64,000 bases of DNA from the NCBI RefSeq assembly GCF_016863135.1, contig NZ_BOOH01000017.1:99122-163121 (forward strand). The letters run 5' to 3'. The position numbers and the translations under genes were made by a program. Positions 9,000 to 30,188 of the stretch are shown one piece after another. Position 1 is the stretch's first letter. Every line of letters begins with the position of its first letter. The DNA comes from Planobispora longispora (GTDB lineage: Bacteria > Actinomycetota > Actinomycetes > Streptosporangiales > Streptosporangiaceae). The notes under the pieces were generated by a model. It was not told where the DNA came from and did not search any database. It was given only the letters and a program-made list of their open reading frames with translations.

Positions 9000-10166
9000 C
9001 TAGAGGGCCCGCTCGGCGCGGGCGAGCTGCCACAGCAGGAACGGCGCGCCGAGCACCCCGGTCACCACGCCGACCGGCAGGACCATGTCGGTCAGGAGCC
9101 GCTGGCTGATCAGGTCGCTGACCAGCACGATCGTCGATCCGGTGAGGGCGGCGGCGGTGACCGGCGGAGCGGCGGCGCGGGCCAGCCGCTGGGCGATCTG
9201 GGGCGCGGCCAGCGCGACGAACAGGACGGGGCCGGCCGCTGCGGTGGCGAACGCGGCGAGCGCGGCCCCGCACAGCATGACGATCATACGGGTGCGCTGC
9301 ACCGGGGTGCCCAGGGCGCCGGCCACCTCGTCGCCGAGGTGCAGGGCCCGCTGGAGCCGTACCAGCAGCAGGACCAGCGGCGCCAGCACGGCCAGGGCCA
9401 GGGCCAGCGGCTGCGCGTGCGCCCAGCCCCGGTCGTTGAGGTTGCCCACGAGCCAGCCCAGCACCCGCTGCGCCTGGTACACCTCCGCCCGGCTCACCAG
9501 GTAGGAGGTGAGGCTGACGCACATCCAGCTGACCCCGATGCCCACCAGCACGATCCGGTATCCCGTGGTGCCCCGGTTCCAGGCCAGCAGGTAGATCAGC
9601 AGACCGGCGGCGAGGGCGCCGCCCAGCCCGAGCGTCTGCGAGCCGAGGCCGGGCCCGGCGCCGACGACGATCCCGACGGCCACGGCGGTGCCGGCCCCCT
9701 GGGTGATGCCGAGCATGTCCGGGCTGGCCAGCGGGTTGCGGGTGACGGACTGGAAGATCGCTCCGGCCATGCCGAAGGCGGCCCCGGCGAGCAGGGCCAC
9801 GGCGGCGCGGGGCAGCCGCAACTCCTGGACCACGAACACGGCGGCGGTGTCGTCGCCCGCCCCCCACAGCGCGGGGACCACGTCGGGCAGCGGGATGGTG
9901 TAGTCGCCGGTGCCGATGCCGACGGTCAGGCAGAAGACCAGGAACGCGGTGGCGGCCATGGCGAGCCAGACCAGCATCAGCCGGAGGCTCAGCGCTCCGG
10001 AGACGGCGGAGCGGGCCAGCCGGAACGCGATGCGGCCGTGAGAGCGGGTGACGGTCAGGAAGGGGGCGGTGGAGGGCGCCGCGGAGGGCGTCGAGGAAGG
10101 CGTCGCCGAGGGGGGCGGGGAGGCCGGGGGCACGGTCGGAGGCATCGGGGGCACGGTCGGGGACAT
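9000..10166 (-). CDS. FecCD-family iron-siderophore permease (second gene)
   Basis: A BtuC/FhuB/FecCD-type permease with about ten transmembrane helices. Family motifs include RLPRAAVALLAGAAFGMAGAIFQSVTRNPLASPDMLGITQGAG, of which the P-L-A-x-P-x-x-L-G-x-x-x-G-A-G pattern is diagnostic, and PVLFVALAAPQIAQRLAR, the cytoplasmic loop that docks the ATPase. The N-terminal ~35 residues are an unusual Pro/Ser/Thr-rich low-complexity extension ahead of the first helix. The start at 10166 is two bases after the stop of the partner permease, so the two are co-translated. It imports the ferric siderophore with the lipoprotein encoded at 11593. No ATPase gene of this importer is present in the window. 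Confidence 0.95.
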   Translation of the reverse strand: MSPTVPPMPPTVPPASPPPSATPSSTPSAAPSTAPFLTVTRSHGRIAFRLARSAVSGALSLRLMLVWLAMAATAFLVFCLTVGIGTGDYTIPLPDVVPALWGAGDDTAAVFVVQELRLPRAAVALLAGAAFGMAGAIFQSVTRNPLASPDMLGITQGAGTAVAVGIVVGAGPGLGSQTLGLGGALAAGLLIYLLAWNRGTTGYRIVLVGIGVSWMCVSLTSYLVSRAEVYQAQRVLGWLVGNLNDRGWAHAQPLALALAVLAPLVLLLVRLQRALHLGDEVAGALGTPVQRTRMIVMLCGAALAAFATAAAGPVLFVALAAPQIAQRLARAAAPPVTAAALTGSTIVLVSDLISQRLLTDMVLPVGVVTGVLGAPFLLWQLARAERAL

Positions 10167-10168
10167 GA

Positions 10169-11362
10169 TCACAGCTCCGCGAGTCGGCGGCGGCGGACCA
10201 GGGCGATGAAGAACGGCGCTCCGAGGAACGCCGCGACCAGGCTCACGTCGATCTCCTGCGGGCGCGCCACGACACGCCCGATGATGTCGCCCACGAGCAG
10301 CAGGCACGGCGCGAGCAGCATCGAGGCGGGCAACAGCCAGCGGTGGTCGGGGCCGGTGATCATGCGGGCCGCGTGCGGCACCACCAGCCCGACGAAGACG
10401 ATCGGCCCGGTGACCGCCACCGCCGCGCCGGTCAGCAGGGTGACCGCCAGGGCGACGCGCAGGCGGACCAGGCCGATCCGGTGCCCCAGCGCGGTGGCGA
10501 CGTCGTCGCCGAGGGAGATGCTGTTGAGGGCGGGCGCGGCGCTCAGCGCCAGAAGCGCCGCGAAGGCGATGAACGGCAGGACGTTGAGCAGCACCTCGAA
10601 GTCGTGCCCGGTCAGGGACCCCGACGACCAGTAGCGGTAGCGGTCCAGGGCCTCGGGGTCGGTCAGCGCGATGCCGCTGGTCAGCGAGTCCAGCAGGTAG
10701 GTCACCGCGACTCCGGCCAGGGCCAGCTTGACCGGGGAGGCGCCGCCCCGGCCCCGGCTGCCCAGCAGGTAGACCACGACGGCGGCGATCGCGGCTCCGC
10801 CGAAGGCGAACCAGATGGAGGTCAGCAGCCCGCCGAGGCCGAGCAGTCCGGCGGCGACGACGGTGCCGAAGGCCGCACCCGCGCTGACCCCCAGCAGCCC
10901 CGGGTCGGCCAGCGGGTTGCGGGTCAGGCCCTGCATGATCGCCCCCGCCAGGCCCAGCGCCGCCCCGGTGAGCACGGCGACCAGGGTGCGGATCGTCCGG
11001 GTGCCCCGGACGATGGCCTCCACCTCGGCGTCGAGCCGCGGGTGGCCGGGGTCGGTGAGGGCGAGGATCACCTGGTCGAGGGGGATGTCCCGGCTTCCCA
11101 CGGCCAGGGAGAGCAGGCACAGGGCGATCAGGACCCCCGCGGCCGTGATGATCAGCAGTGGACGCCGCACCCGCCGGGATCCGTTCGTGCCCGCATTCGT
11201 GCCCGCCGGACTCGCGTCCGCTCTCGTACTCGCGTCCGCTGGACTCGCGCCCGCTCCCGTGTTCGCGCCCGGTTCCGCAGCCGCGTCAGTCCCGGGCGCG
11301 CCGGATCCGGCGCCGTCCGGCGGTGGGGGCCCGTGCGGAGGCGTTGTTCTGGGAGAAGTCAC
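10169..11362 (-). CDS. FecCD-family iron-siderophore permease (first gene)
   Basis: Paralogous partner of the next permease. It carries the same diagnostic stretch (TRNPLADPGLLGVSAGAA), around ten transmembrane helices, and the ATPase-coupling loop GPIVFVGLVVPHAARM. The first ~65 residues are Pro/Ala/Ser/Thr-rich with short repeats (ADASPAG, TNAGTNG), unusual for the family. I chose GTG at 11362. A TTG at 11389 would add nine residues but sits inside the iron box at 11382-11400; ribosome-binding sites are weak for both. It is the first gene of the leftward importer operon, under two iron boxes shared with the binding protein. Confidence 0.92.
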   Translation of the reverse strand: MTSPRTTPPHGPPPPDGAGSGAPGTDAAAEPGANTGAGASPADASTRADASPAGTNAGTNGSRRVRRPLLIITAAGVLIALCLLSLAVGSRDIPLDQVILALTDPGHPRLDAEVEAIVRGTRTIRTLVAVLTGAALGLAGAIMQGLTRNPLADPGLLGVSAGAAFGTVVAAGLLGLGGLLTSIWFAFGGAAIAAVVVYLLGSRGRGGASPVKLALAGVAVTYLLDSLTSGIALTDPEALDRYRYWSSGSLTGHDFEVLLNVLPFIAFAALLALSAAPALNSISLGDDVATALGHRIGLVRLRVALAVTLLTGAAVAVTGPIVFVGLVVPHAARMITGPDHRWLLPASMLLAPCLLLVGDIIGRVVARPQEIDVSLVAAFLGAPFFIALVRRRRLAEL

Positions 11363-11381
11363 GAAGGTCCCATCTGGCCTT

Positions 11382-11400
11382 TTAGGCAAGGCATACCTTA
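11382..11400. promoter_or_regulatory. Iron box 3
   Basis: TTAGGCAAGGCATACCTTA keeps the TTAGG and ACCTTA arms of the iron box with a changed centre. It lies just upstream of the leftward permease operon, overlapping the alternative TTG start. Confidence 0.78.
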
Positions 11401-11438: not shown

Positions 11439-11457
11439 CTAGGTAAGGCTTACCTTA
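11439..11457. promoter_or_regulatory. Iron box 4
   Basis: CTAGGTAAGGCTTACCTTA is a near-perfect dyad of the iron-box type. It lies about 135 bases upstream of the binding-protein start and 57 bases from box 3, so the divergent region appears to have one operator for each direction. Confidence 0.85.
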
Positions 11458-11592: not shown

Positions 11593-12654
11593 ATGTCCCA
11601 TCCCCCCATGCCCGCTCCCGGCACCCGGCTCGCCAAGCGTCTCCTGCTCGCCCTCACCGCGCTGACCCTGACCGCGGTCGCCGCCGGCTGCGGTGCGGAC
11701 CGGCCCGCCGACCGGGCCGAGGCCACACCGGCCGCACCGGTCGCCTCCGGGACCGCGCCGGCCACGGGATCGGCCTTCCCCGTGACGGTCGAGCACCTGT
11801 ACGGCACGACGGAGATCAAGAAGAAGCCGGAGCGGATCGTCACCTTCGGCCTCAGCGACCACGAGCCGGTGCTGGCGCTCGGCCACAAGCCGATCGGCGT
11901 GGTGGACTGGTTCCAGCGGACTCCGTTCACCGACTGGCCGTGGACCAAGGACGTCTGGGGCGGCGCCGAGCCCACGGTCCTGGGCCTGCGCGAGGACGGC
12001 GTCAAGTTCGAGAAGCTGGTCGCGCTCAAGCCCGACCTGATCTTCGCCATGTACTCCGGCATCCAGAAGGAGCACTACGACCAGCTCTCGAAGATCGCCC
12101 CGGTGGTCGCCCAGCCCAAGGGCTACGACCCCTACGCCGCGCCGTGGCAGGAGATGACCCTGCTGGCCGGGCGGGCCCTGGGCGAGGAGGCCAGGGCCAA
12201 GGAGCTCATCGCCGGGATCGACGAGAAGTTCGCCCAGGTGCGCAAGGAGAATCCGCAGTGGTCGGACATGACCGCCGTCGCCGCCGACAGCTTCAAACCC
12301 GGGCAGTACTCGGCCTTCCAGAAGGGTGACCCCAAGTCGGCGTTCCTGGCCGAGATGGGCTTCACCGTCCCCACGGAGATCACCGAGAAGGCGGGCACGT
12401 CGAACGTCGCCGAGTTCGGCTCCGAGGGCCTGAACATGCTGGAGGTCGACCGGCTGGTCTGGCTCACCACCGGCAAGGAGCCCTGGGAGCGCATCAAGAA
12501 CGACAAGGTCTACAAGGAGCTGAAGGTCGCCAAGGAGGGGCGCGACCTCTTCCTGACCTACCAGGACCCGCCGATCGGAGCGGCGCTGTCCTTCAACACG
12601 GTGCTCAGCATCCCGTACGCCATCGAGCAGGTCGCGCCGCTGATCAAGAAGTAG
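11593..12654 (+). CDS. Ferric-siderophore-binding lipoprotein
   Basis: A class III periplasmic-binding-fold protein (FepB/FhuD/CeuE type). A lipoprotein signal ends at a lipobox around residues 33-37 (AVAAGC). The mature protein has two lobes: KKKPERIVTFGLSDHEPVLALGHKPIGVV at the start and a helical link followed by the C-lobe ending VAPLIKK. Length (353 aa) is normal. It should capture the ferric siderophore outside the membrane and hand it to the two FecCD permeases encoded divergently. AGAGGAAAAG precedes the ATG. It is 54 bases ahead of the NRPS and probably co-transcribed with it from the iron-regulated promoter at about 11.45 kb. Confidence 0.94.
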   Translation: MSHPPMPAPGTRLAKRLLLALTALTLTAVAAGCGADRPADRAEATPAAPVASGTAPATGSAFPVTVEHLYGTTEIKKKPERIVTFGLSDHEPVLALGHKPIGVVDWFQRTPFTDWPWTKDVWGGAEPTVLGLREDGVKFEKLVALKPDLIFAMYSGIQKEHYDQLSKIAPVVAQPKGYDPYAAPWQEMTLLAGRALGEEARAKELIAGIDEKFAQVRKENPQWSDMTAVAADSFKPGQYSAFQKGDPKSAFLAEMGFTVPTEITEKAGTSNVAEFGSEGLNMLEVDRLVWLTTGKEPWERIKNDKVYKELKVAKEGRDLFLTYQDPPIGAALSFNTVLSIPYAIEQVAPLIKK

Positions 12655-12708
12655 TCCCGCGTCCGACGACATCCGACGACATTCCCCCGTGGCGGGGCAC
12701 GAGAAGGC

Positions 12709-15700
12709 ATGGAGACGATGGTCGAGGACGGACGTGTGCTGCCGCTGACCGGCGCGCAGACCGGGATCTGGCTGGCCCAGCGGATCGAGCCGGACAGCCC
12801 GGTGTACAACATCGGCTGCTATGTGGACCTCTCCGTCCCCGCCGGACGGGGGGACGGAGAGGTCACCGGGGAGGGACCCGCGCCGGACGGGCCTGATGCG
12901 CCGGATGGCTCCGAGGCGCTGGATGGGCTCGCGACGGCGGGCGGGCCTGAGACGGCGGGCGGGCCCGACGTGCCGCGCCTGGCCGCGGCGGTGCGGCGGG
13001 CCGTACGGGAGGCCGAGCCTCTGCACGTGGTGTTCACCGAGGTGGAGGGCCGCCCCGTCCAGGCCCGCCGCCTCCCCGGGGGCTGGGCGCCCGCCGTCCT
13101 GGACCTGACCGGCGAGCCCGACCCCGAGGCGGCGGCCCGCGCCTGGATGGACGCCGACATGGCCCGGGTCGCCGACCTGGCGCGCGGTCCCCTGTTCGCC
13201 CAGGCGCTGCTGCGGATCGGCCCGCACCGGGTCTGGTGGTACCAGCGCTACCACCACCTGCTCACCGACGGGTACGGGGTCCTGCAGATCACCAACCGGG
13301 TCGCCGAGCTGTACGGCGCGGAGCTCGCGGAACTCGCAGATCCCGCGGAGCTCGCGGGGCTCGCAGATCCCGCGGGGCTCGCAGATCCCGCGGGGCTCGC
13401 AGATCCCGCGGGGCTCGCGGAGCCCGCGGACGGCGCCCCGGTCGCGCACAGCTGGTCGCTGCGGAATCTGATCTCCGGTGACACGGCCTACCGCGGCTCG
13501 GAGCAGCACACGGCCGACCGCGACTTCTGGCACGACCGGCTCGCCGGCCTGCCCGACGAGCCCGCCCGCCTGGTGGAGTGCCCGCCCGTCCAGGCGGCCC
13601 GGACCCTCCGGCGCACCGTGGAGCTGTCCGCCGAGCGGACGGAGCGGCTGCGCGAGGCCGCCGCCTCCGCCGGGACCCGCCTGTCCCGCCTGGCCATCGC
13701 GGCCATGGCGGCCTACCTGCACCGGGCCACCGGCGAGCAGGACGTGGTGCTCGGCCTGCCGGTGACCGGCCGGGTGGACGCCGGGTCGCGGGACACGCCC
13801 GGCCTGATGTCCAACGTCCTCCCGCTCCGCCTGGCCGTACGGCCCGACACGACCCCCGCCGAGCTCGTCGAGGCGGTCGCCGGGAACGTCCGCGAGCTGG
13901 CCGCGCACGCGCGCTACCGGGGTGAGGACCTGGCCAGGGAGCTGGGACGCCCCGAGGGCCTGCGCGCCCTCATCGGTCCCACCGTCAACGTCATGCCCTT
14001 CCACGGGGAGACGCGGTTCGGCGACCTGTCCGGCGTGATCCACTACCTGTCCCTCGGTCCGGTCATCGACCTGTCCGTCGCCGTCTACGACCGGCCCGCC
14101 GGGCAGGGCCTGCGCGTCGACTTCGACGCGGACGCCTCCGTCTGCGGCCCGGAGGAGCTCGCCGGGCACGAGCGGCGCTTCCTGGCGGTGCTGGAGGCGG
14201 TGGCCACCGCGATGACCACCGCCCCGGACCGGCCGCTGGGCGCCATCGACCTGACCACCGACGACGAACGCCGGCTGGTGCTCGACCGCTTCGCCGGCGC
14301 CCTGCCTCCGGTCCAGGAGCTGTCGTGGACCGCGGCGTTCGAGCGGCGGGCCGCGCACGCGCCGGACGCGCTCGCCCTGATCTGCGAGTCGGAGCGGCTG
14401 TCGTACGCCGAGCTGAACGGCCGGGCCAACCGGCTGGCCCGGCTGCTGCGCGCCCGCGGAGTCCGCGCCGAGGACGTCGTCGCGGTCGCCGTGCCCCGCT
14501 CGGCCGACATGGTCGTCGCCCTGCTCGGTGTGATGAAGGCGGGCGCCGCCTATCTTCCCCTCGACCTGGACCACCCGGCGGACCGGGTGGCGTACATGAT
14601 CGAGGACGCGCGGGCGCGCGCCGTCGTCTCCGTGACGGACCTCGCCGGCGAGCTTCCCGAGCTCCGCGATCTCCGTGAGTCCCGCGATCTCCGTGAGTCC
14701 CGCGAGGTTCCTGAGTCATGTGAGACTTCTGGGCCCCGCCAGCCTCGCGAGGTCTCCGTCCCCCGGTTGCTCCTGGACGACCCCGCCGTCGTCGCGGAGC
14801 TGGCCGGTCTGGAGGACACCGACCTCACCGACCTCCCCGATCTCGCCGGCCTGGGCCTGGACCGGGCCGCGTACGTCATCTACACCTCGGGATCGACCGG
14901 CCGCCCCAAGGGGGTGGTGATCTCCCACGACGGCATCGGCAGCCTGATCCGCACCGCCACCGAACGGCTCGGCGTGGACGCCGCCAGCCGGGTCGTGCAG
15001 TTCGCCTCGGTCGGGTTCGACGTCGCCGTCTGGGACCTGGTCATGTCCCTGTGCGTGGGCGGCACGGCGATCATCGTGCCCGCCGAGCGGCGCGTCGCCG
15101 GGGAGGAGCTGACCGGCTACCTCACCGGGCACCGGGCCACCCACATGATCCTGCCTCCGTCACTGGTGGCCGCCCTCCCCGCCGAGTGCGAGCTGCCCGA
15201 GGGCGGGGTGCTCGTGGTGGGCACCGAGGCCGTCCCGGCCGAGCTGATCGCCCGATGGGGGCGGCGCATGCGGGTCGTGGTGGCGTACGGCCTCACCGAG
15301 GCGACGGTGAACTCCACGCTCTGGCTCGCCGACCCCGACCTGCCGGGCCCGGTGCCGATCGGCGTCCCCGACCCGGGGACCCGCTGCTACGTGCTCGACT
15401 CCGCGCTGCGGCCGGTGCCGCCCGGCGCCGTGGGCGAGCTGTACGTCGCGGGCCGCGGACTGGCCCGCGGCTACCTCGGCAGGCCGGGCCTGACCGCCGA
15501 GCGGTTCGTCTCCGACCCGTTCGGCGCGCCCGGCGACCGCATGTACCGCACCGGGGACCGGGCCCGCTGGCGTCCCGACGGGAACATCGACTTCCTCGGC
15601 CGCGAGGACGGCCAGCTCAAGATCAGGGGCTATCGCATCGAGCCCGGCGAGGTCGAGAGCGCCCTGATGGCCCACCCCGCCGTCGCGCAGGCGGCGGTCG

Positions 15701-18700
15701 TCGCCCGCGAGGACCACCGCGGCGTCAAGCGGCTCGTGGCCTACGTGACGGGACCCGGATCAGGGGCCGGCTCTGAGCCCGTGAACGGGGCCGGGTCTGA
15801 GCCCGTGAACGGGGCCGGGTCTGAGCTCGGGAACGGGACCGGCTCCGGGCTGGGATCCGCTTCCGCCTCCACCCCCGGCTCCGGCTCCGCTCCGGGCCCT
15901 GGCTCCGCCTCCGGGGACGGGGCCCGGTTCCGGGCCGTCGACCCGGCGGAGCTGCGGAGTCTGGTGGCGGGCACGCTGCCCGACTACATGGTGCCCGGCA
16001 CGATCGTGGTGCTGGACGGCGTGCTACCGCTGACCCCGAACGGCAAGCTGGACAGGCAGGCTCTGCCGGAACCCGAGTGGACGGCGCAGACGGGGGGCAC
16101 CGCCCCGTCCACCCCGGCCGAGCACGTCCTGGCCGATCTCTTCGCCGAACTGCTCGGGCTGCCCGCGGTGGGCGTCCACGACGGGTTCTTCGAGCTCGGC
16201 GGCGACAGCATCGTCGCGATCCAGCTGGTGAACCGGGCCCGCCGCGCCGGGCTGGTCATCACCCCCCGCGACGTCTTCCGGCTCCGGACCGTCGCCGCGC
16301 TCGCCCGTGAGCAGGCCGGCCGGGCCGGTCAGGCCCCGGAGCAGGTCCACGACCCGGGCGTCGGCGACGCGCCGGCGACCCCGATCATCCACTGGCTGCG
16401 CGAGCTCGTGGAACCGGCGCGATCCACAGGGCCCGCGGAACTCCCAGAACCCGCCGATCCCGTCCAGCCCATCGATCCGCAGGCCGTCGATCCGCAGGCT
16501 GTGGATCCACAGGTCGTCGGTCCACAGGCCGACGATTCCGCGCGGCCTACGGGGGCCGCCGGTCCCGGGAGGCCGATCGACGGCTTCCACCAGGCCGTGG
16601 TGCTGCAGGTTCCGGCGGATCTCACCACCGAGCTGCTGGCTTCGGTCCTGCAGGCCGTACTGGACCATCACGGCATGCTGCGCGCCCGGCTGCGGCGGGC
16701 CGACGGCTGGGCCCTGGAGGTCCCGCCGCCGGGCGCGGTCCGGGCGGCCGGCCTCGTGGAGCGGGTCGAGGTCGGCGCGAACCTTCCACAGGCTGTGGAC
16801 AGTTCGGACGGGACGGCCGTCGCGGACGGCGCGGGCATCGCCGTCCGTGGGGATACCCCCGGTATCCGGAACGATGCGGAGATCACGGGCGTCCCGGGGG
16901 CCCGGGGCGGTACGGCTGTCACGGGCAGCGGGGGCGCCCTGGGCGAAATGATCGCCGAGCACCGCCGCCGGGCCGCCGGCCGGCTGGCCCCCGAGGAGGG
17001 CCGGATGCTCCAGGCGGTCTGGCTCGACGCCGGGCGGAGCGTCCCCGGACGGCTGGTGCTGGTCGCCCACCACCTCGTCGTCGACGGCGTGTCCTGGCGC
17101 ATCCTGCTGGCCGACCTCGCCCAGGCCGCCCGGTCCCTCGCGGCGGGACAACCGGTCACCCTGCCGCCGGTCGGCACGTCCTTCCCGCGCTGGTCGCGGA
17201 TGCTGGCCGCGGACGCGCTGACCGCTTCCCGCCGGGCCGAGCTGGAGAGCTGGCGGGAGATGCTCCGCGAGCCGGCCCCGGCCCTCGGGCTGCGGCCGCT
17301 GGACCCGGCGACCGACACGGCGGCGAACGAACGTTCGCTGACGGTGTCGCTGCCCGGCGACCAGACCGCCCCGCTCCTCGCCGACCTCCCGGCCGCCTAC
17401 CACGGCACGGTCAACGACGTCCTGCTGACCGCGCTCGCCGCCGCGGTCGCCCGCTGGCGTCAGGACCGTCCGGCCGGCATCGGCGCGGATTCCGGTCCGG
17501 GCACGAGCCGTGGGCTCCTGCTGGAGCTGGAGGGCCACGGGCGCGAGCAGGACGAGCTGGCGAACGGGGACGGCCCGGCGGGCGGGGCCGCTCTGGCGGG
17601 TGGGAACGACCTGGCGGGTAGCAGTGACCTGGCGGATGAGATCGACCTGGCGGGCGGGGCCGATCTGTCCCGCACCGTGGGCTGGTTCACCAGTGTCTTC
17701 CCGGTCCGGATCGACGCCGGTGACATCGACTGGGCGGAGTTCCGGGCAGGCGGGCCCGCCGTCGGTCGCGCGCTCAAGCGGATCAAGGAGCAGCTGCGCG
17801 CCCTGCCCGGCTCCGGCCTGGGCTACGGGCAGCTGCGCCACCTGAACGAGGAGACGGCGGGCGCGCTGGCCGCCGCGCCGGAACCGCAGCTGCTCTTCAA
17901 CTACCTGGGCCGCTTCCGGGCGGACGAGGGCGGGGACTGGCGGCTCGCCGACGACGCCGAGCCGCTGACGGCCGGCCGTGACCCGGGGATGCCGCTGTCG
18001 CGTCCGCTGGAGATCAACGCGGTCGTCCGGGACGGGACCTCGGGGCCGGAGCTGAGCGCGACCTGGTCGTGGCCGGACGGGGTCCTCGACCGCGCCGGTG
18101 TCGCCGAGCTGGCCGGGCTCTGGCTGGAGGCGTTGCGAGGGCTCACCGCGCACCTGGCCGCGCCGGACGCGGGAGGACACACCCCCGCGGACTTCCCGCT
18201 GGTGGAGATCGGCCAGGACGAGATCGACGAGCTGGAGGCGGCCCCGTACGGCCTGCGGGACGTCCTGCCGGTCACCCCGCTCCAGCAGGGACTGTTCTTC
18301 CACGCGCTCTTCGACGAGGACGTCTCCGACGTCTACACGGTGCAGCAGGTCATCGAGCTGACCGGTGTCGACCGGGACGCGGGGAATGCCGAGAGAGCCG
18401 AAGGCGCCGGGCGGAACGCCGTCGACGGCGCCGCCGGAGGCGCCCTGCACCGCGCGGTGCAGGGGCTGCTGGAGCGCCACCCGCTCCTGCGCGCCGGGTT
18501 CCGGCAACGGTCCGACGGCCGCGTCGTCCAGTTCGTCCCCGGTACGGTGACCGTGCCGTGGCGGGAGATCGACGCTCTGCGCCCCGAGGGCGGGACGGCC
18601 CACACCGCGGAAGGGGAGATCGTCCGCGCCGTCGCGGAGGAGGAGCGGGCGCACCGGTTCGACCTCGCGGCTCCCCCGTTGATGCGCGCCGCGTTCGTCC

Positions 18701-21700
18701 GCGGCGCGGACCGCCACTGGCTGGTCCTCACGCTCCACCACCTCGTCGCCGACGGCTGGTCGGTGCCGATCATGCTGCGTGACCTGCTCGCCGGGTACCG
18801 GGCCGATGCCGAGAAGCCCGGCGGGACGAGCACCGGTGCGGAAAGCCTCGGCGGGGTGAGCGCCGGTGCCGAGAAGAGCCGCGGAGCGAGCACCGGTGCG
18901 GAGCGAACCGACGAGGCGGCTGACACTCGCGCCGCGATCTCTGGCAAAGCGGCGGCTGACGCTCGCGCCGCGGTCTCTCTCTGCCGCGAATACTTCTCCT
19001 GGCTGAAGGGCCGCGACCGGGAGGCGGCGCGCGCCGCCTGGCGGCAGGCGCTGTCCGGGCTGGAGGAGCCGACCCTGCTGGCGCGGGCCGTACGCGGGGC
19101 CGTATCCACGGATGAGGCCGTGCCCGCGAGCGGGGCCGTACCGGCGGGTGAGGCGGCGCCCGGGCCGATCGGGCAGGTCCGCGGCGAGCTCACCGCGGAG
19201 CTGACCGCCGAGCTGACCGCGTGGGCGCGCGGGCGCGGGCTCACGCTGAGCACCGTCATCCAGGGCGCATGGGGACTGCTCGCGGGACGCCTCACCGGTC
19301 GTCGCGACGTCGTGTTCGGCACCACCGTCTCCGGCCGGCAGGCCGCCGTCGAGGGCGTCGAGTCGATGGTGGGCCTGCTGGTCAACACGTTGCCGGTACG
19401 GATGACGTGGCGGCCCGGCGAGCACCCGGCCGACCTTCTGACCCGGCTCCAGGACGCCCAGGCGGACCTGCTCGACCACCAGCACCTCGGACTGGCGGAG
19501 ATCCAGCGGCTGGCCGGGTTCACCGATCCGGACACGCGGAGCCTGTTCGACACCCTCGTCGTGATCGAGAACTACCCCGTCAGAGGGGACCTGCGCGCCC
19601 CCGGCGGGGCCTTCGAGATCACCGGGGTCGACATCCGCGACGCCTCCCACTACCCCCTGTCCCTCACCGCGGTGCCCGGGGACCGGCTGGACCTGCGGCT
19701 CGACTACGACACCGGGCGGTTCGACGCCGGGACGGCCGCGCGGCTCTCGGCGGCGCTGATCCGGTTGCTCGAAGAGATGGCCGCGGATCCCGACCGCCCG
19801 GTCGGCCGGTTCGACCTGCTGCCCGCCACCGACCGTGGGCGGGCGGCGCTCACCGGAGCGGTCAGGCCGGTCCCGGAGGAGACGCTGGCGACGGCCTTCG
19901 CCGCGCAGGTCGCCGCCTCGCCCGGCGCCACCGCGCTGATCTCCGGTGCGGAGGAGGTCTCCTACGCCGAGCTGGACCGCAGGGCCGAGGACCTCGCCCG
20001 GCGGCTGGCCGCCCGGAGGATCGGCGCGGGGCAGTTCGTGGCGGTGGCGGTCCCGCGCTCGATCGAAATGATCGTCGCGCTGCTGGGCGTGCTGAAGTCG
20101 GGTGCGGCGTACGTGCCACTGGACGTCGAGTACCCCGCGGACCGGCTGGCGTTCATGCTCGCCGACTGCGGGGCCCGCGCCGTCGTCACCACGGAGGAGA
20201 CCGCCGCCCGGCTCCCCGGGGCGTACGGCGTCGAGCGCGTCATGATCGACCGCGGGGAGGCCGCCGACGGAGCCGAGCCCGGATCGGGGACGCCCGCCTC
20301 GCGTCCGGCCATTCCCGTCTCGCGTCCGGCCGGGTCCGGCGATCCCGCCTATCTCATCTACACGTCGGGCTCGACCGGCCGCCCCAAGGGCGTCGTCGTC
20401 ACGCACCGGGCGATCATCGGCCACCTCGCGTGGGCGCAGGGCGAGTTCGGTCTGGACTCCGGCGACCGCATGCTCCAGCAGGCGTCGGCGAGCTTCGACG
20501 CCTCCGTCTGGCAGATCTTCTGGCCGCTGTGCGCCGGGGCCGCCGTCGTGCTCGCCGAGCCCGGCGGACACTTCGACCCGGACTACCTGGCCGGTCTCAT
20601 CCAGGAGCGGCGCGTCACCGTCCTGGACATCGTCCCCTCGATGATCCAGGCGTTCCTGGCCACCGAGGAGGTCGCCGGCGACTCGGCGTGGGCCGCGAGC
20701 CTGCGCAAGGTCTTCGGCGGCGCCGAGGCGCTGACCGCCGGGGTGGCCCGCCGCTGGCGGGAGCTGACCGGCGTGCCGGTGGACAACTGCTATGGGCCGA
20801 CCGAGGCCACGGTCCAGGTCACCTGGCAGGACGGATCCCAGCAAGCCGGGTCGCAACCGTCCGGACTCCTGCCGTCAGAGTCTTCGCCGTCCGAGTCTTC
20901 GACGTCCGGGTCCCGGCGATCCGGGTCCCCGTCGTCCGGGGGCGGGGCCGTCCCGATCGGCGGGCCGGTCTGGAACACCCGCCTCTACGTCCTCGACGCC
21001 TGCCTGCGGCACGCGCCCGAGGGCGTGCCGGGGGAGCTCTACATCGCCGGGGACCAGCTGGCCCTCGGCTACCACGGCCGTCCCGGTCTCACCGGTGAGC
21101 GGTTCGTCGCCGACCCGTACGGCCCGCCGGGCACGCGCATGTACCGCACCGGCGACCTGGTGCGGCGCCGCCCCGACGGCGCCCTGGAGTACGTGGGCCG
21201 GACCGACCACCAGGTCAAGATCCGCGGTAACCGCGTCGAGCTCGGCGAGGTCGAGGCCCGGCTGGCGGACGAGCCCGGGGTCGCACGGGCCGTGGCGGCG
21301 GTCCACGGCTCGGGGGCCGCCGCGCGGCTGGTCGGGTACGCGCTGCCGGAGCCCGGCGCCCGGCTCGACGGAGCCGCGCTCCGTTCCGCGCTGGCCGCGG
21401 CGCTGCCCGCCCCGATGGTCCCCGGCGCGGTCGTCGTGCTCGACGCGCTTCCGCTGACGCCCAACGGCAAGGTGGACCGGGCCGCCCTGCCCGTCCCGGA
21501 CGCCGCCGCCGGGGCCGCCCGGAGGGAGGCGCGGGCGCCGCGCACCGAACGGGAGGCGCTGCTCTGCCGGATCTTCACCGAGGTCCTGGGGACCGAGGCC
21601 GGAGCCGACGACGACTTCTTCGTGCTCGGCGGCGACAGCATCGCGTCCATCACCGTCTCCGGGCGCGCCCGCCGGGCCGGTCTGCCGCTCAGTCCCCGCG

Positions 21701-24700
21701 ACGTCTTCACGCACCGCACGCCCGCCGCGCTGGCCGAGGCGGTGGCCGGGACGCAGGCGGGAGACGGAGCACCCGAGGGGAACGGGGCGCGGGAGGGCGA
21801 CACCGACCACGCGGGGCGGGCGGGAGACGGGACGCGAGCGGACCTGATGCGGCTGACCGCCGGGGAGGCCGACCGGGTGCGGCAGGTCAGCCCCGTCCCC
21901 GTCGAGGACGTCTGGCCGCTCTCCCCGCTGCAGGAAGGCATCTTCTTCCACTCCACCTACGACGCCGGCGACGCGGACGCGGTCGACGTCTACACCTCGC
22001 AGGACGTCTTCACGTTCACCGGGCGGATCGACGCCGACCGGCTCCGCGCGGCCTGCGCGGCGCTGCTGGCGCGCAACCCGAGCCTGCGCGCCGGGTTCAC
22101 CGGCGAGGGGCTGCCCCGGACGGTGCAGTTCATCGGCGCCGACGTGCCGTCCCCGGTGCGCGAGATCGACCTGTCCCGCCTGCCCGCCGCCGAGCAGGCC
22201 GAGCGGGTGGCCGCGCTGCTGGCCGAGGACCGGACCCGGCGGTTCGACCTGTCCAGCCCGCCGCTGATGCGGCTGCTGCTGATCCGGCTCGGCGATCACG
22301 ACCGGCTGGTGGTCAGCCACCACCTGATCCTGTGGGACGGCTGGTCGGCCTGGCTGTTCCTGGAGCAGCTGTTCGCCCTGTACGACCGGGCGGGCGACGA
22401 CCGCGGCCTGCCCGCCCCCGGCTCCTACCGGGACTACCTGGCCTGGCTCGCCGGACAGGACTCCGGAGCGGCGCTGGCGGCCTGGCGCGAGGCCCTGTCC
22501 GGCTTGGCCGAGCCGACGCTGGTACGGCCCGCCGACGACGGCCTGCGCCCGGTGATCCCGCTGAACCTCGACGCCCTGCTCCCCGCGGAGCTCGGCGACC
22601 GGCTCCGCGCCACGGCCCGCGAGCACGGCCTGACCCTCAACACCGTGCTCAACGCCGCCTGGGGGCTCATCCTGTCCGCCGCCGCCGGCCGCGACGACGT
22701 GGTCTTCGGCGCGGCGGTCGCGGGACGCCCGGTGGCGGTCCCCGAGGTGGAGAGCATCATCGGGATGTTCCTCAACACGGTTCCGGTGCGGATCTCCTTC
22801 GACCCGCGCGAGCCCGTGCTGGACCTCCTGCGGCGGGTGCAGGACGAGCGCGTGGCGCTGATGCCGTACGAGCACCTGGGTCTGGGGGAGCTGCAGCGGG
22901 AGAGCGGGCACCGCAGGCTCTTCGACACGCTCTTCGTGCTGCGCGACGCCGGCGGCGAGGAACGGATGACCGCGTTCACGCGGGGCAACGGCATCGTGGA
23001 CGTGACCGGGATCGACGCCACCCACTACCCGCTCACCCTCATCGTGACCCAGGGCTCCCGGCTGCGCGTGACGCTGTCGTACCGGCCCGACGCGTTCGGG
23101 GCGGACGAGGCCGCCGCGCTGCTGGCGCGCTACACGGCGGTGCTGGAGCGCCTGGTGGACGGCCTGGCGGAGCGGACCGGCGCACTCGACCTGCTCCTCC
23201 CGGGAGAGCGGCGGAGCCTCGGCGCGGAGTGGGACGCCACGCGGCGCCCGCTGCCCCCGGCGACCGTCGCCGAGCTGCTCGCCGAGCAGGCGGCGCGCAC
23301 CCCGGACGAGGTGGCCCTGGTCTTCGGCGCCGAGCGCCTGACCTACGCCGAGCTGGACGTGCGGATCAACCGCATGGCCCGGCTGCTGCTGGCGTACGGC
23401 GCCGCGCCGGAGCGGGTGGTCGCGCTGGCCCTGCCGCGCTCGGCCGACATGGTCGTGGCGCTGTTCGCCGTGCTCCAGACGGGCGCCGCCTACCTGCCCC
23501 TGGACCTGGAGTATCCGGCCGAGCGACTGGAGTTCATGCTCCGGGACACCGCCCCGGCGTGTGTGGTGACCACCACGGCGGTCGCCGCGACGCTCCCGGA
23601 CACCGGGGTGACGCGCGTCCTGCTCGACGACCCGGCCACGGTCGCGGCGCTGGCGGCGCTGCCCTCCGGCGTACTGGCCGACGGCGAGCGCCCGGCCTTC
23701 GCCCGCGACCTGCCGCACCGGCTGGAGCACCCGGCATACGTGATCTTCACCTCGGGCTCCACCGGCCGCCCCAAGGGCGTCGTCACGCCCTATCGCGGGC
23801 TGACGAACATGCAGTTCAACCACCGCGAGGCCATCTTCGACCCGGCGATCGCGGCGGCCGGCGGGCGGCGGCTGCGCATCGCCCACACCGTCTCCTTCGC
23901 CTTCGACATGTCGTGGGAGGAGCTGCTCTGGCTGATCGAGGGGCACGAGGTCCACGTCTGCGACGAGAACCTGCGCCGCGACGCCGAGGCGCTGGTGGCC
24001 TACTGCGACCGTGAACGGGTCGACGTCGTCAACGTGACGCCCACCTACGCCCACCACCTCATCGAGGAGGGCCTGCTCGACGGGCACCGGCCCCCGCTGG
24101 TGCTGCTCGGCGGCGAGGCGGTGTCCGAGACGGTCTGGAGCACGCTGCGGGACACCCCCGCAACGTTCGGCTACAACCTGTACGGGCCGACCGAGTACAC
24201 GATCAACACGCTCGGCGCCTCCACCGGCGACAGCCCGACCTCCACGGTGGGGCGGCCGATCTGGAACACCCGCGCCTACGTGCTCGACTCCGCGCTGCGC
24301 CCGGTCCCGCCGGGCACCCCGGGCGAGCTCTACATCAGCGGGGTCGGCCTGGCGCGCGGCTACCACCGCAGGCCCGGCCTGACCGCCGCGAGCTTCGTCG
24401 CCGACCCGTTCGGCGACGAGCCGGGCGCCCGCATGTACCGCACCGGCGACCTCGTGCGCCTCCGTCCCGACGGCAACCTGGACTTCCTCGGGCGGACCGA
24501 CGACCAGGTGAAGATCCGCGGTTACCGGGTCGAACTGGGCGAGATCGGGGCGGCGCTGGAGGAGCATCCGCTGGTCTCGCACGCCGCCGTCGTGGCCGAC
24601 GCCTCCGGGCCGGGCGGGGCCAAGCGGCTGGTCGGGTACGTCGTGCCCCAGGACGCCGCCGTGCTCCAGGACGCCGCCGCGTCCCAAGAGTCGGAGTCCT

Positions 24701-27700
24701 CGGGATCCTCGGGATCCTCGGGGGCTCCGGGGCAGGAGGACCTCGTCACGGCTCTGCGGGAGTCGCTGAAGGCCCGGCTGCCGGGCTACATGATCCCGGC
24801 CGCGATCATGGTGGTGGACCGGCTGCCGCTCACCGTGAACGGCAAGCTGGACGTGCGGGCGCTGCCCCGGCCCGCCGTCACCGCCGGGGGCCGGAGCCGG
24901 CCGCCGCGCTCGCCGCAGGAGCAGGTCCTGTGCGCGCTCTTCGCCGAGCTGCTCGGCGTGGAGCGGGCCGGGATCGACGACGACTTCTTCGACCTGGGCG
25001 GGCACTCCCTGCTGGCCACCCGGCTGGTCAGCCGGGCCCGCGCCGCGCTCGGCGCGGAGCTGGCCATCCGGGACCTGTTCGAGGCCCCGACGGTCGCCGA
25101 GCTGGCGGCCCGGGTCGCCGCCGCCGGCGCCGTACGGCGCCCGGCCCTGCTCCCCGCGGCCGAGCGGCCCGAGGAGCCCCCGCTCTCGTCCGCCCAGCAG
25201 CGGCTCTGGGTGATCGAGCAGCTCGAAGGCCCGTCGGCGGTCTACAACTTCCCGCTCGTCATCCGGCTGCGCGGCGCGCTCGACGTCGAGGCGTTGCGGG
25301 CCGCGCTGGCCGACGTGGCGGGGCGGCACGAGGCGCTGCGCACCCGCATCGCCGAGCGGGAGGGCCGCCCGTACCAGGACGTCGTCCCGGCCGGGATCGC
25401 CCGCCCGCCGCTGGAGGTGGTCGAGGCCGGGGAGGAGCGGCTCGACGAGGTCCTGGCCGGAGTCCTCGCCCGCCCGTTCGACCTGGCCGTCGAACTCCCC
25501 CTGCGCGCCACGGTCGTACGGCTGGGCGCCCACGAGCACGTGGTGGCGCTCCTGCTGCACCACATCACCACCGACGAGTGGTCCGACGGGCCGTTCCTGC
25601 GCGATCTGTCGGCCGCGTACGCCGCCCGCCGCGACGGGCGGGAGCCGGACTGGGATCCCCTGCCGGTGCAGTACGTCGACTACACGCTCTGGCAGCGGGA
25701 ACTGCTCGGCGACCGCTCCGACCCCGAGAGCCCGGCCGCGCGCCAGCTCGCCTACTGGGGCGAGACCCTGCGCGGCGCTCCCGAGCAGCTCGAACTGCCC
25801 ACCGACCGGCCCCACCCGGCGCGGCCGAGCCCGGCCGGCGGGGAACTGGTGGTCGAGCTGGACCCGCAGGACTGCGTGCGCCTGCGCGAGGTCGCCCAGC
25901 GGGCCGGGGCGAGCATGTTCATGGCGTGCCACGCGGTGGTCGCCGCGCTGCTGCACCGCCTCGGGGCCGGGGACGACCTCCCGCTCGGCGCGCCGATCTC
26001 CGGCCGCACCGACGGGGCCCTGGACGAGCTGGTCGGCTTCTTCGTCAACACCCTCGTGCTCCGCACCGACGTGTCGGGCGACCCGACCTTCGCCGAGCTC
26101 GTCGGCCGGGTCCGGGAGAGCGCCCTGGCCGCCTTCTCCCACCAGGACGTGCCGTTCGAGGCCGTCGTGGAGGAGCTGAACCCGGTGCGCTCGCCCGACC
26201 GCAACCCGCTGTTCCAAGTGATGGTCGGCTACCGCAACCGTGCGGACGACGGCTTCGCCATGGCCGGGCTGGAGGTTCTGCCGCAGCCGGTCGAGGCCCG
26301 CACGGCGAAGTTCGACCTGGTGTTCGGCTTCGCCGAGGACGCCGGGAGCGGCCGGATCGCCTGCGTGATCGAGTACCGCTCCGACCTGTTCGACCGGGCC
26401 ACGGTCGCGACGCTGGGCCAACGGCTGTCCGCGCTCGTCGGCGCGGTGGCCGCCGATCCCCGGCTCCCGGTCAGCGGCGTCGACGTGCTCACCGAGGCCG
26501 AGCGCGAGCAGGTCGTCACCGGCTTCAACCGGACCGGCCGGGCGGTGGACGAGGAGACCTTCCCCGGGATGTTCCGGCGGCGTGTGACCGAGCGCCCCGG
26601 CGCCGTCGCCGTGGTGGACGGGCCGCGCTCGGTCACCTACGCGGAGCTGGACGCCCTGTCGGACCGCATGGCCCGGCTGCTGGCCCGGTACGGCGTGCGC
26701 GCCGAGAGCGTGGTCGGCGTGGCGGTGCCGCGCTCGGTGGAGATGGTCGCCGTGATGCTCGGCGCGAACAAGCTGGGCGCCGCCTTCCTCCCGCTCGACC
26801 TCGCCCACCCCGCCGACCGCCTGGCGTACATGCTCGGCGACGCGCGGGCGGCGGTCGTCGTGGCGACCGAGCAGGTCGCGGGCAAGGTCCCGGAGGTCGA
26901 GGGGCTGCCCGTGCTGCTGCTCGACACTCCCGAGGTCGCCGCGGAGACGGCCGCCATCGAGGCGGGCGGGCCGTTCCCGCCCGTCGCCGCGGACGCGGTC
27001 GCCATGGACCAGGCCGCCTACGTGATCTACACCTCGGGCTCGACCGGGCGGCCCAAGGGCGTCGTCGTCCCGCACGAGGGGATCAGCAGCCTGGTGGCCA
27101 CGGCCGTGGACCGGATGGGCCTCACCCCTGACAGCCGGGTGCTGCAGTTCGCCTCGATCGGCTTCGACGTGACCATCTTCGAGCTGTCCATGGCGCTGTG
27201 CCACGGCGGCTGCCTGGTGCTCGTCCCCGACGAGGCCCGGGTTCCCGGCCGCGAGCTGACCGACTTCATGAACGAGCAGCGGATCACCCACGCGATCCTG
27301 CCGCCGTCGCTGGTCGCGGCCCTGCCGTCGGAGTGCGAGCCGCCGGAGGGGGCCACCGTACTGGTCGGCACCGAGACCGTTCCGCCCGCCGTGATCGCGC
27401 GGTGGGCCGGGCGCCTGCGGCTGCTGGCGGCCTACGGGCTGACCGAGGCGACGGTGAACTCGACGCTGTGGCCGGCCGAGCCGGGCTGGTCCGGGGCGGT
27501 GCCCATCGGCGTGCCCGACCCCAACACCCGCGTGTACGTGCTGGACGCGCACCTGCGCCCGGTCCCGCCCGGGGTGCCCGGGGAACTGTACGTCAGCGGT
27601 CGCGGGCTGGCCCGGGGCTACCTGGGACGGCCCGGCCTGAGCGCGGAACGGTTCGTCGCCTGCCCCTTCGGCCCGCCCGGCACGCGGATGTACCGCACCG

Positions 27701-29961
27701 GCGACCGGGCGCGCTGGCGTGCCGACGGGAACATCGACTTCCTCGGCCGGACCGACGACCAGGTGAAGATCCGCGGCTTCCGCATCGAGCCGGGCGAGAT
27801 CGCCGGTGCGATGACCCGGCACCCGGGCGTCGCCCAGGCGGCGGTGGTGGTGGACCGGAGCGGACAGGAGCCGAGACTGGTCGGCTACGCGGTCCCCAGC
27901 CGCGACGGGACCGGAGCCGGAGACGGCGGTGCGGCCGGGACCGGTGGCGGAAGCGGGGACGGAGTCGGAGCCGGGAGCGGCCTCCCGCTCGACCCGGCCG
28001 GGATCCGGGCCCACGTGGCGGAGCTGCTCCCGGACTACATGGTCCCGGCCGCGGTGGTGGTGCTCGACGGGCCGCTCCCGCTCACGCCCAACGGCAAGCT
28101 GGACCGCCGGGCGCTGCCGGCCCCCGACTGGTCGGCGCTGACCGGCACGGCCCGCCCCGCCACCGGGCGGCAGCGGGCTCTGGCGGATCTGTTCGCCGAG
28201 ATCCTCGAACTGCCCGAGGTGGGGATCCACGACAACTTCTTCCTGCTGGGCGGCCACTCGATGTCCGCGATGCGGTTGCTGGGCCGGGTCCGCACGGTGC
28301 TGGACGCCGACCTGGCCCTGCGCGACGTCTTCGAGGCGCCCACGGTGGCCGCGCTGGCCGAGCGCCTGGGCGACCAGCTGGACGGATCCGGAGAGGACCG
28401 GGTGGACGAGTCCGGCGCTGTCCGGCCCGACGGGTCCGGGAGCGGCCGGGAGTCCGCGGCCGGGAACCGTCGGCGTCCGCGGCTGGGCCGGGGCGACAGG
28501 CCGCAGGTCCTGCCCGCCGCGCCGCCCCAGGAATGGCAGTGGGCCCGATACCGCGCCGGGACCGGGCGGGTCCACGACATGGCGTTCGCGCTGCGCGCAC
28601 CCGGCGGCCTGGACGCCGGGGCGCTCGCCGCCGCGCTCGCCGACGTCGCCGCACGCCACGAGCCGCTCCGCACGGCCTTCACCGAGTACGGCGGGCAGCC
28701 CGCGCAGGAGACCGCCGGACGGTACGGGATGACAGGCCGGGAACCGGCCGGGCCCGAGGCGGAATTCCTACGGGAACCGGGAGGAGCCGAGGCGGAACGT
28801 CTTCGGGAACCGGTCCGGGGACTCGTCCAGGAGCCTGCCGGGCAGGTGCTCGAGATCGTCGAAGTCGACGACCTGGAGGAGCGGCTGCGCGCGCTAGCGG
28901 CCGGGGAACCGGACCTGACCGGGCGCCCGCCGCTCCGGGCCCGGCTGCTCGTCGACGGCTCCGGGGCCCAGGCGCTCCTGCTCACGATGCACTACATCGG
29001 CGTCGACGAGTGGTCCGTCGTCCCGCTGATCCGCGACGTCGTCACCGCCTACACGGCCCGGCGGCGGGGAGACGCCCCGGGCTGGAGCGAGCTCCCGGTG
29101 ACTTACGCGGACTACACGTCGTGGGCGCACGAGCTGCTCGGCGGGACCGGCGGGGTCGCCGACCGGCAGCTCGCCTACTGGCGGGAGGCCCTGCGCGGAC
29201 TGCCCCTCGATCCCGCGCTGCCGTACGACCGGCCGCGCGAACAGGATTCCGGCGGGCAAGGCCCCGACAGCCGGGGCTCCGACGGGCAGGGCCCCGATGG
29301 CCTGGCCGCCGGCGGGCGCGGGGACCACGTCGGGTTCGTGCTCGACCCGGCCCTGCACGGCGGCGTCGACGACCTCGCCGCCCGGACGGGCACCAGCATG
29401 TTCATGGTGCTCCAGGCGGCGCTGGCGACGCTGCTCACCCGGCACGGCGCCGGGACGGACCTGCCGATCGCCTCGCTGGTGGCGGGCCGTGCGGAGGAGG
29501 CGCTCACCGATCTGGTCGGGTGCTTCTTCAACACGGTCGTCCTGCGCACGGACACCTCGGGCGAGCCGACCTTCCGCGAACTGCTCGCGCGGGTGCGGGA
29601 GACCGACCTGGCCGCGCTCGACCGGCAGGACGTCCCCTTCGGCCGGGTGGCGCGGGAACTCGGCCTGCCCGCGCCGAGGGTGATGCTGGTCCATCACGAG
29701 CAGGCACGGATGGCGGAGATGGAGGACATCGGCGCGGCGTTCGAACCGGTCCCCACCGGGGCGCTCAACGCCGACCTGACGCTGAGCTTCTTCGAGCCGC
29801 GCGGCGACGGGCCCGTGGACTGCCTGCTGGAGTACGACACCGGTCTGTTCGACCGGGGCACGGTCCAGCGGCTCGCGGACGACCTGGTCCGCATCCTGAA
29901 GACGGCGGTGGCCGATCCCGACCGGCCGCTCGCCGACGACCCGAGGAGGAACGACTCATGA
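12709..29961 (+). CDS. Four-module siderophore NRPS with terminal condensation domain
   Basis: A single 5,750-residue peptide synthetase. Domain order: C1 (~5-500, HHLLTDG at 182); A1 (~538-1120); T1 (Ser 1167, GGDS); E (~1225-1830, HHLVVDG at 1454, SRTVGWFT); C2 (~1845-2300, HHLVADG at 2010); A2 (~2385-2930); T2 (Ser 2977, GGDS); C3 (~3060-3500, HHLILWDG at 3204); A3 (~3515-4055); T3 (Ser 4100, GGHS); C4 (~4150-4580, HHITTDE at 4284); A4 (~4610-5140); T4 (Ser 5184, GGHS); C5 (~5260-5740, HYIGVDE at 5428). There is no thioesterase. Specificity codes read by alignment to GrsA: A1 DVWIVGAVN, A2 DAWDVGCVQ, A3 DMENLGLIN (the known hydroxyornithine code), A4 DVFILGAVN. The predicted product is a tetrapeptide tris-hydroxamate whose last two residues may be released as a diketopiperazine; this is inference from erythrochelin-like lines. 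Low-complexity repeats interrupt C1, A1 and the E domain. Its stop overlaps the MbtH start. Confidence 0.96.
13333..13431 (+). repeat. 18-bp tandem repeat inside NRPS C1 domain
   Basis: Units of CTCGCAGATCCCGCGGGG, encoding LADPAG. There are three exact copies in a row (13360-13413) flanked by variant and half copies, all in frame. It sits in C1 after the HHLLTDG motif and is likely a surface-loop expansion. Confidence 0.9.
15763..15834 (+). repeat. 24-bp tandem repeat inside NRPS A1 domain
   Basis: Three nearly identical 24-bp units encode GAGSEPVN, then run into a Gly/Ser-rich linker. The repeat lies in the A1 C-terminal subdomain, between RLVAYVTG and the LPDYMVPG motif. Confidence 0.9.
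16471..16530 (+). repeat. 15-bp tandem repeat inside NRPS E domain
   Basis: Four degenerate 15-bp units encode (I/V)DPQA-like pentapeptides. They occur early in the epimerisation domain, between IIHWLREL and the [10 protein letters not shown] strand. Confidence 0.85.
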
Positions 29962-30188
29962 GCAGCAACCCGTTCGAGGATCCCGAGGGCCGTTTCCTGG
30001 TTCTCGTCAACGGCGAGGGCCAGCACTCGCTCTGGCCGTCCTTCGCCGAGGTTCCGGCGGGCTGGGAGAAGGTCTTCGGAGAGGAGTCACGGGACGCCTG
30101 CCTGGAATACGTGGAGACGAACTGGACGGACATGCGCCCCCGCAGCCTCGCCGAGGCCATGGAACGGACGGAGACCGCTCAGACCTGA
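29958..30188 (+). CDS. MbtH-like protein
   Basis: A 76-residue protein with the full MbtH signature: [15 protein letters not shown], then [34 protein letters not shown] and SL. MbtH proteins bind adenylation domains and are often needed for their folding or activity, so this is the partner of the NRPS. Its ATG overlaps the NRPS TGA (ATGA), and GAGGAGGAA lies just upstream, so it is translationally coupled. It ends 16 bases from a convergent reductase gene and closes the biosynthetic operon. Confidence 0.97.

What the first reader, a model, noticed from the sequence alone, without database searches (positions are those of the whole stretch)
12709..29961. One-protein siderophore assembly line ending in a condensation domain
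The 14-domain order and absence of a thioesterase resemble erythrochelin-type synthetases, which release a diketopiperazine with a terminal C domain. With a formyltransferase instead of an acetyltransferase beside it, and a hydroxyornithine code in A3, this predicts a formyl-hydroxamate relative that may be undescribed: residue 1 formyl-hydroxyornithine (D), residue 2 unknown, residues 3-4 hydroxyornithine and formyl-hydroxyornithine closed as a ring.
Basis: partly seen in the sequence, partly recalled or inferred. Interest (0 to 1): 0.75.

Follow-up and report, generated by a model that had tools for sequence, protein, structure and literature searches.

The report
Foroxymithine-like siderophore assembly line
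One giant bacterial enzyme, with hydroxylase, formyltransferase and transporter genes and iron-box-like DNA sites around it, is predicted to make an iron-binding peptide of the known foroxymithine/erythrochelin kind, likely with a different second building block and likely released as a small ring.

Summary
In detail: one 5,750-residue NRPS, C-A-T-E-C-A-T-C-A-T-C-A-T-C, no thioesterase, in a cluster with formyltransferase, N-hydroxylase, two permeases, binding protein, two exporter halves, an MbtH gene overlapping its stop codon, and iron-box-like sites. The host groups with Planobispora. The formyl scaffold is not undescribed: foroxymithine is the known compound, and two S. venezuelae synthetases have identical A1, A3 and A4 codes and the same terminal C. 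The window differs by an epimerase in module 1 and a non-serine A2 code, so its product is predicted not to be foroxymithine. A salinichelin-like peptide linked to an erythrochelin-type cluster is reported from Planomonospora, whose synthetase is 87% identical over modules 3-4. New here: in relatives the A2 code varies while A1, A3 and A4 codes stay nearly fixed; and C domains feeding hydroxyornithine modules lack HHxxxDG, with Leu (rarely Phe, Val, Met) where the second His would be, in 126 of 126 family and 99 of 99 other cases. Verdict: new member of a known kind, with an unusual catalytic-motif pattern.

The parts
12709..29961 (+). NRPS, 5750 aa, C-A-T-E-C-A-T-C-A-T-C-A-T-C
12736..14208 (+). 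C1 (limits approximate), motif HHLLTDG intact; predicted N-terminal acyl cap
14326..16008 (+). A1 (limits approximate), code DVWIVGAVN, predicted formyl-hydroxyornithine
16381..18258 (+). E1 (limits approximate), motif HHLVVDG intact
18271..19848 (+). C2 (limits approximate), motif HHLVADG
19861..21483 (+). A2 (limits approximate), code DAWDFGCVQ, substrate unresolved, not the Ser code
21826..23178 (+). C3 (limits approximate), motif HHLILWDGW with Leu aligned to the second His; predicted to acylate the side-chain N-OH of residue 3
23206..24843 (+). A3 (limits approximate), code DMENLGLIN, hydroxyornithine type
25126..26478 (+). C4 (limits approximate), motif HHITTDE
26506..28098 (+). A4 (limits approximate), code DVFILGAVN, predicted formyl-hydroxyornithine
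28561..29928 (+). C5 (limits approximate), terminal condensation domain, motif HYIGVDEW; predicted diketopiperazine release
29958..30188 (+). MbtH-like protein, 76 aa, start overlaps the NRPS stop (ATGA)
   Evidence: Pfam MbtH 96.9 bits in the genome search, reading frame; the NCBIfam scan lists no family for it
6505..7452 (-). formyltransferase, NVHDSLLP motif
7623..8966 (+). ornithine/lysine N-monooxygenase
5243..6469 (-). ArgE/DapE family M20 deacylase, about 35 bp from the formyltransferase
9000..10172 (-). FecCD-type permease
10169..11389 (-). FecCD permease (start uncertain)
11593..12654 (+). iron-siderophore binding protein
31546..33561 (-). ABC exporter half
33593..35305 (-). ABC exporter half
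7499..7517 (.). iron-box-like site between formyltransferase and hydroxylase
11382..11400 (+). iron-box-like site, overlaps the longest reading of the permease ORF
11439..11457 (.). iron-box-like site upstream of binding protein and NRPS
35464..35482 (.). iron-box-like site upstream of the exporters

Best explanation
The window encodes a four-module, 14-domain NRPS without a thioesterase, in a cluster with an N-hydroxylase, a formyltransferase and iron transporters, which is predicted to make a three-hydroxamate siderophore of the foroxymithine/erythrochelin kind, likely N-acyl-D-fhOrn-X-(hOrn-fhOrn diketopiperazine) with X likely not serine. Predicted course: ornithine is hydroxylated and formylated; C1 likely caps residue 1 (acetyl in foroxymithine, recalled); E1 makes residue 1 D; C3 likely joins residue X to the side-chain N-OH of hydroxyornithine 3, which gives the third hydroxamate and leaves its alpha-amine free; that amine then likely attacks the residue-4 thioester in C5, which releases the ring. 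Shown: architecture, codes, gene neighbourhood, iron-box-like sites. Inferred: every chemical step. Unknown: the identity of X.
For: Architecture and codes. A1/A3/A4 codes equal those of two proteins labelled S. venezuelae, a species reported to make foroxymithine. A formyltransferase of 70-96% identity in 17 of 17 genomes of loci L001-L017. Formyltransferase, hydroxylase and both exporter halves in 15 of 16 extended loci. Four iron-box-like sites against 0 in 100 shuffles. MbtH overlapping the NRPS stop. C5 dN/dS 0.43 against P. rosea, within the 0.14-0.65 of the other 13 domains.
Against: No product is known for this strain. The erythrochelin synthetase was not reached. C5 of the window lacks the second His, so catalysis by it is not assured. 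The acyl cap and the side-chain linkage rest on recalled structures. The iron-box pattern is recalled and was written after I had read 11360-12800, so only the 7499 and 35464 sites are independent of it.
Confidence: 0.78

Rival explanations
1. The product is the salinichelin-like peptide already seen in Planomonospora, so the compound is already known in part. This is compatible with the best explanation and bears on novelty only.
For: The Planomonospora sp. ID67723 NRPS is 87% identical over modules 3-4 and has the same four codes and domain order. Passages of PMC9113118 and PMC7916644 report salinichelin/erythrochelin-related peptides and an erythrochelin-type cluster in that genus.
Against: The primary papers are not held, so neither the structure nor the strain behind the reported cluster was seen.
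Confidence: 0.55
2. The diketopiperazine forms spontaneously from the T4 thioester and C5 is only a platform, since its second His is Tyr.
For: HY in the window; Tyr at that place in 117 of 117 foroxymithine-type proteins with four A cores; the first His is lost too in some (GY, RY, SY, DY, QY).
Against: 56 of 58 rows end 451-570 aa after the last carrier motif, as for a kept C domain (L167 and L188 not readable by the script); C5 is under purifying selection; 14 of 58 rows keep HH, which fits an active domain.
Confidence: 0.2
3. The product is foroxymithine itself.
For: Identical A1, A3 and A4 codes and shared tailoring genes.
Against: A2 code DAWDFGCVQ instead of DVWHFSLVD; E1 present, while A-core spacing shows no E domain in 117 of 117 foroxymithine-type proteins.
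Confidence: 0.05
4. Release is by hydrolysis, giving a linear tetrapeptide acid.
For: No direct evidence; the M20 deacylase next to the formyltransferase could act on peptides.
Against: No thioesterase in the protein or among the cluster genes scanned.
Confidence: 0.07

Closest known systems
Foroxymithine synthetase type (Streptomyces venezuelae P0293, P0318)
   Same: Four modules, terminal C, no thioesterase; A1, A3, A4 codes identical; C3 and C5 motifs of the same unusual type. Related Streptomyces loci carry the formyltransferase and N-hydroxylase.
   Different: A2 is a serine-type code, no E domain by spacing; 49-77% identity per domain for P0293.
Planomonospora sp. ID67723 NRPS (P0002) / salinichelin-like peptide
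   Same: Same codes and domain order, 87% identity over modules 3-4.
   Different: Other genus; product structure not seen; that this NRPS makes the reported peptide is inferred.
Planobispora rosea cluster (L001; region 27 of PMC8269224 may be this one, inferred)
   Same: Same codes and order; neighbouring genes at 83-96% identity.
   Different: Other species; the paper's passage says the metabolite will be reported elsewhere.
Erythrochelin synthetase EtcD (recalled)
   Same: Terminal C release of an ornithine diketopiperazine, recalled.
   Different: Acetyl instead of formyl hydroxamates and D-Ser at residue 2, recalled; sequence not reached.

Membership tests
Foroxymithine synthetase | A1, A3, A4 codes of the S. 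venezuelae type | tested here: met
   DVWIVGAVN, DMENLGLIN, DVFILGAVN identical to P0293 and P0318
Foroxymithine synthetase | serine-type A2 | tested here: not met
   DAWDFGCVQ versus DVWHFSLVD
Foroxymithine synthetase | no E domain | tested here: not met
   E1 in the window; none by A-core spacing in 117 of 117
Foroxymithine/erythrochelin scaffold | terminal C after T4 and no thioesterase | tested here: met
Foroxymithine/erythrochelin scaffold | diketopiperazine product | not testable with these tools
   needs LC-MS or NMR
Erythrochelin synthetase | acetylated hydroxamates (recalled) | tested here: not met
   formyltransferase in the cluster; no acetyltransferase among the cluster genes scanned; an enzyme elsewhere in the genome was not sought
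Erythrochelin synthetase | sequence relation to EtcD | not tested
   EtcD not among the fetched sequences; the genus search matched 0 of 6 genomes and had no positive control
Salinichelin | residue 2 and acyl groups of salinichelin | not tested
   primary paper not held

The most novel reading that the evidence does not exclude
Condensation domains that acylate a side-chain hydroxylamine, and the terminal ring-closing one, work without the catalytic histidine: the N-OH nucleophile and the intramolecular attack need no general base, so HHxxxDG has become (H/R)(L/F)xxWDGW before hydroxyornithine modules and HYxxxDEW in most terminal domains. This gives a sequence signature for hydroxamate-forming C domains, in an assembly line where residue 2 alone is exchanged by natural module swaps.
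Probability: 0.35. Interest if true: 0.65.

Novelty: new member of a known kind. Interest (0 to 1): 0.42.

Why it matters
It settles that the formyl scaffold asked about is known, and narrows the unknown to one residue. It points to a natural design rule: the codes of the three iron-binding modules are kept while module 2 differs, with identity between S. venezuelae and Streptomyces ISL-100 at 76-87% over A1, 53-68% from C2 to C3 and 87-97% over A3. If the motif pattern reflects catalysis, it would tell from sequence which C domains form hydroxamates and would bear on whether C domains need their second histidine.

Tried and rejected
Siderophore replacement idea: IucA/IucC synthetases occur in 4 of 4 genomes of the genus, with this NRPS (G000, G019) or without it (G018, G020), so no simple swap is seen. 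Identifying X from other A domains of the window's genome and P. rosea: of the 30 best matches fetched (many more matched), A2 itself and its P. rosea ortholog share one code and no other readable code equals it; four were unreadable and several partial, and the pattern reader misread one A2 position, so it was not used further. Paper search for the code strings: 0 papers. EtcD: not reached. Papers on a missing His before hydroxyornithine modules: searches were seen as listings only, plus passages of PMC10212144, and showed nothing to the point; two listed papers on C-domain structure (PMC8097023, PMC11546977) were not opened, and the library holds open-licence papers only. So I do not claim that the pattern is unpublished.

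Flaws and dropped rows. The fast alignment shifted the third code letter of A1, A2 and A4; codes are quoted. Three of 120 proteins without four A cores were dropped. Of 58 rows (some the same genome twice), L013, L180 and L188 lack a full set (L188 a wrong frame), and L005, L167, L186 and L187 gave no C5 motif by pattern. L010 was not extended, so 16 of 17 loci were. In one search only the 25 commonest C5 motifs (154 of 171 proteins) were printed. 196 of 1,143 other A domains showed neither motif by regex. E domains in relatives were called from A-core spacing, not by profile.
Full report
What is there. The ORF at 12709-29961 encodes 5,750 aa with codon-position GC of a real gene. Pfam and motif positions give C-A-T-E-C-A-T-C-A-T-C-A-T-C and no thioesterase. 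An MbtH gene starts on the NRPS stop (29958-30188; Pfam match, frame; NCBIfam lists nothing for it). Around it lie a formyltransferase with an NVHDSLLP motif, an ornithine/lysine N-hydroxylase, two FecCD-type permeases, a binding protein, two ABC exporter halves and an ArgE/DapE-type deacylase. A recalled iron-box pattern with up to 3 mismatches hits four places, 7499, 11382, 11439 and 35464, near the starts of cluster genes; 100 shuffles gave none. I wrote the pattern after reading 11360-12800, so the two sites in that stretch are not independent of it; the other two are.

Host. The window lies in contig C17 of an 8.84 Mb genome. A 'same genus' genome, G019, has its match at the coordinates of the Planobispora rosea JCM 3166 contig, so the host groups with Planobispora. 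G266, whose contig length equals that of the Planomonospora ID67723 protein record, is given another genus.

Family. A3 is DMENLGLIN in 57 of 57 rows that have it; A4 is DVFILGAVN in 55 of 57; A1 is DVWI(V/I/L)GAVN in 40, DVFILGAVN in 12 and DINYWGGIG (Rhodococcus) in 3 of 55. A2 varies: DTWTSGFVQ 15, DAWD(F/L)GC(V/I)Q 13, DP(Q/L)D(F/Y)GV(I/V)Q 8, DALAFGV(I/V)Q 7, DVWHFSLVD 7, Rhodococcus Ser-like codes 3, DVWNFALVH 2, of 55. E domains, called from spacing, vary too (E1 only, E2 only, both or none). The window is in the DAWDFGCVQ, E1-only group with Planobispora rosea, Planomonospora and Spirillospora; Sinosporangium (DAWDLGCVQ) and Actinocorallia (DAWDFGCIQ) are close. Frequency: 28 of 297 genomes sampled from the order match at E up to 1e-145, 25 of them at 665 bits or more, and 21 of 200 sampled from the Catellatospora family at 1e-140.

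Relation to the known. A search with a Streptomyces relative listed its best 120 proteins, among them P0293 and P0318 labelled S. venezuelae (the strain was not checked). 117 of 120 have four A cores, and by spacing and tail length all 117 have no E domain and end in a C domain. For P0293 and P0318 the A1, A3 and A4 codes equal the window's and A2 is the Ser-like DVWHFSLVD; one search agrees for the other proteins in the letters it reads correctly. S. venezuelae makes foroxymithine: passages of PMC8788739 (table legend), PMC9769785 (cluster RS35125-35150, 'tentatively matched') and PMC11005364 (mutants). The make-up of foroxymithine (acetyl, fhOrn, Ser, hOrn, fhOrn) is recalled; the formula computed from it is C22H37N7O11. 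So the scaffold with formyl groups is known. Planomonospora makes desferrioxamine or compounds related to salinichelin and erythrochelin (PMC9113118, passage), and a salinichelin-like metabolite was paired with an erythrochelin-type cluster (PMC7916644, passage). In P. rosea a cluster similar to erythrochelin's was noted, with the metabolite to be reported elsewhere (PMC8269224, passage). The primary papers were not held.

Tailoring genes. 17 of 17 genomes of L001-L017 hold a formyltransferase of 70-96% identity. In the 16 loci extended upstream, the formyltransferase, hydroxylase and both exporter halves are found in 15, the binding protein in 12 and the deacylase in 5 (Planobispora, Sinosporangium and three Actinomadura; in none of the Streptomyces loci). 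The exception is Catellatospora: within the fetched stretch it has only permeases and binding protein, and its formyltransferase lies about 25 kb from the NRPS on the same contig.

Condensation motifs. Among 171 proteins (window included, many close relatives), C2 reads HHxxxDG or, in 3, HHxxxDA, and C4 reads HHxxxDE in all; C3 ends in WDGW in all, mostly HHLILWDGW, with RQFLLWDGW in 3; C5 is mostly HYxxxDEW, at least 136 of 171 in the printed part. HMMER aligns C3 with PvdL so that Leu stands on the second His; RHLLLWDGW, RQFLLWDGW and RRFLLWDGW versions support that reading. AlphaFold models (mean pLDDT 83.9 for C3, 71.6 for C5) place a strand, then 4 residues (C3) or 5 (C5), then the Asp and a helix, so C3 shows no longer loop; coordinates were not inspected. 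In 221 proteins outside the family, 98 of 99 hydroxyornithine-type A domains (by regex) are preceded by an xxWDGW form without HHxxxDG, the other by RQMLIWDGW as read by eye; none of 1,143 other A domains is preceded by that form. In the family it is 126 of 126. One more hydroxyornithine-type domain outside, in Gordonia, fits too (1 of 1). The residue at the second-His place is Leu in nearly all, Phe, Val or Met in a few. C and A domains may travel together and many sequences are close, so the counts are not independent events. C5 has Tyr at the second place in 117 of 117 foroxymithine-type proteins; of 58 rows, 33 are HY, 14 HH, 5 other Y forms, 1 AH, 4 not found and 1 a wrong frame. So His is not lost everywhere, which speaks against a general rule for C5. 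C5 is not decaying: dN/dS 0.43 against P. rosea, the other domains 0.14-0.65.

Mechanism. From recalled structures of erythrochelin and foroxymithine, residue 2 is joined to the side-chain N-OH of hydroxyornithine 3; this leaves its alpha-amine free to close the ring on residue 4. This would explain both odd C domains: C3 takes a hydroxylamine nucleophile and C5 an intramolecular amine. This step is inference.

Residue 2. A2 has Asp at position 278 and Gln at 331. By recalled codes it resembles Gln/Glu-type pockets more than Ser; Arg or Lys are not excluded. I do not assign it.

Module exchange. Between S. venezuelae P0293 and Streptomyces ISL-100, identity is 76-87% over A1, 53-68% from C2 to C3 and 87-97% over A3; a second pair (PKU-EA00015) shows the same course. 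This fits exchange of the module-2 block, which was not tested with trees.

Noticed in passing
5243-6469: ArgE/DapE-type deacylase (TIGR01910 over its cut-off) about 35 bp from the formyltransferase; in 5 of 16 extended loci and in none of the Streptomyces ones. It could supply ornithine or trim the product.
   Followed up: partly
21826-23178 and relatives: C domains before hydroxyornithine-type A domains lack the canonical HHxxxDG motif in the protein sets examined.
   Followed up: yes
P0293 versus L003 and L009: Identity drop limited to the module-2 block, as from a natural module exchange.
   Followed up: partly
35881-36720: One protein with an F420H2-dependent quinone reductase domain and a hemerythrin domain.
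   Followed up: no
G000, G018, G019, G020: IucA/IucC synthetases in 4 of 4 genomes of the genus, so a second siderophore route is likely.
   Followed up: partly
L014, L015, L016: Rhodococcus members have A1 code DINYWGGIG and, by spacing, both E1 and E2: another variant of the line.
   Followed up: no
L013: Streptomyces t39 NRPS frame covers only 3,251 aa, perhaps a split or frameshifted gene; two close formyltransferase copies lie on that contig.
   Followed up: no
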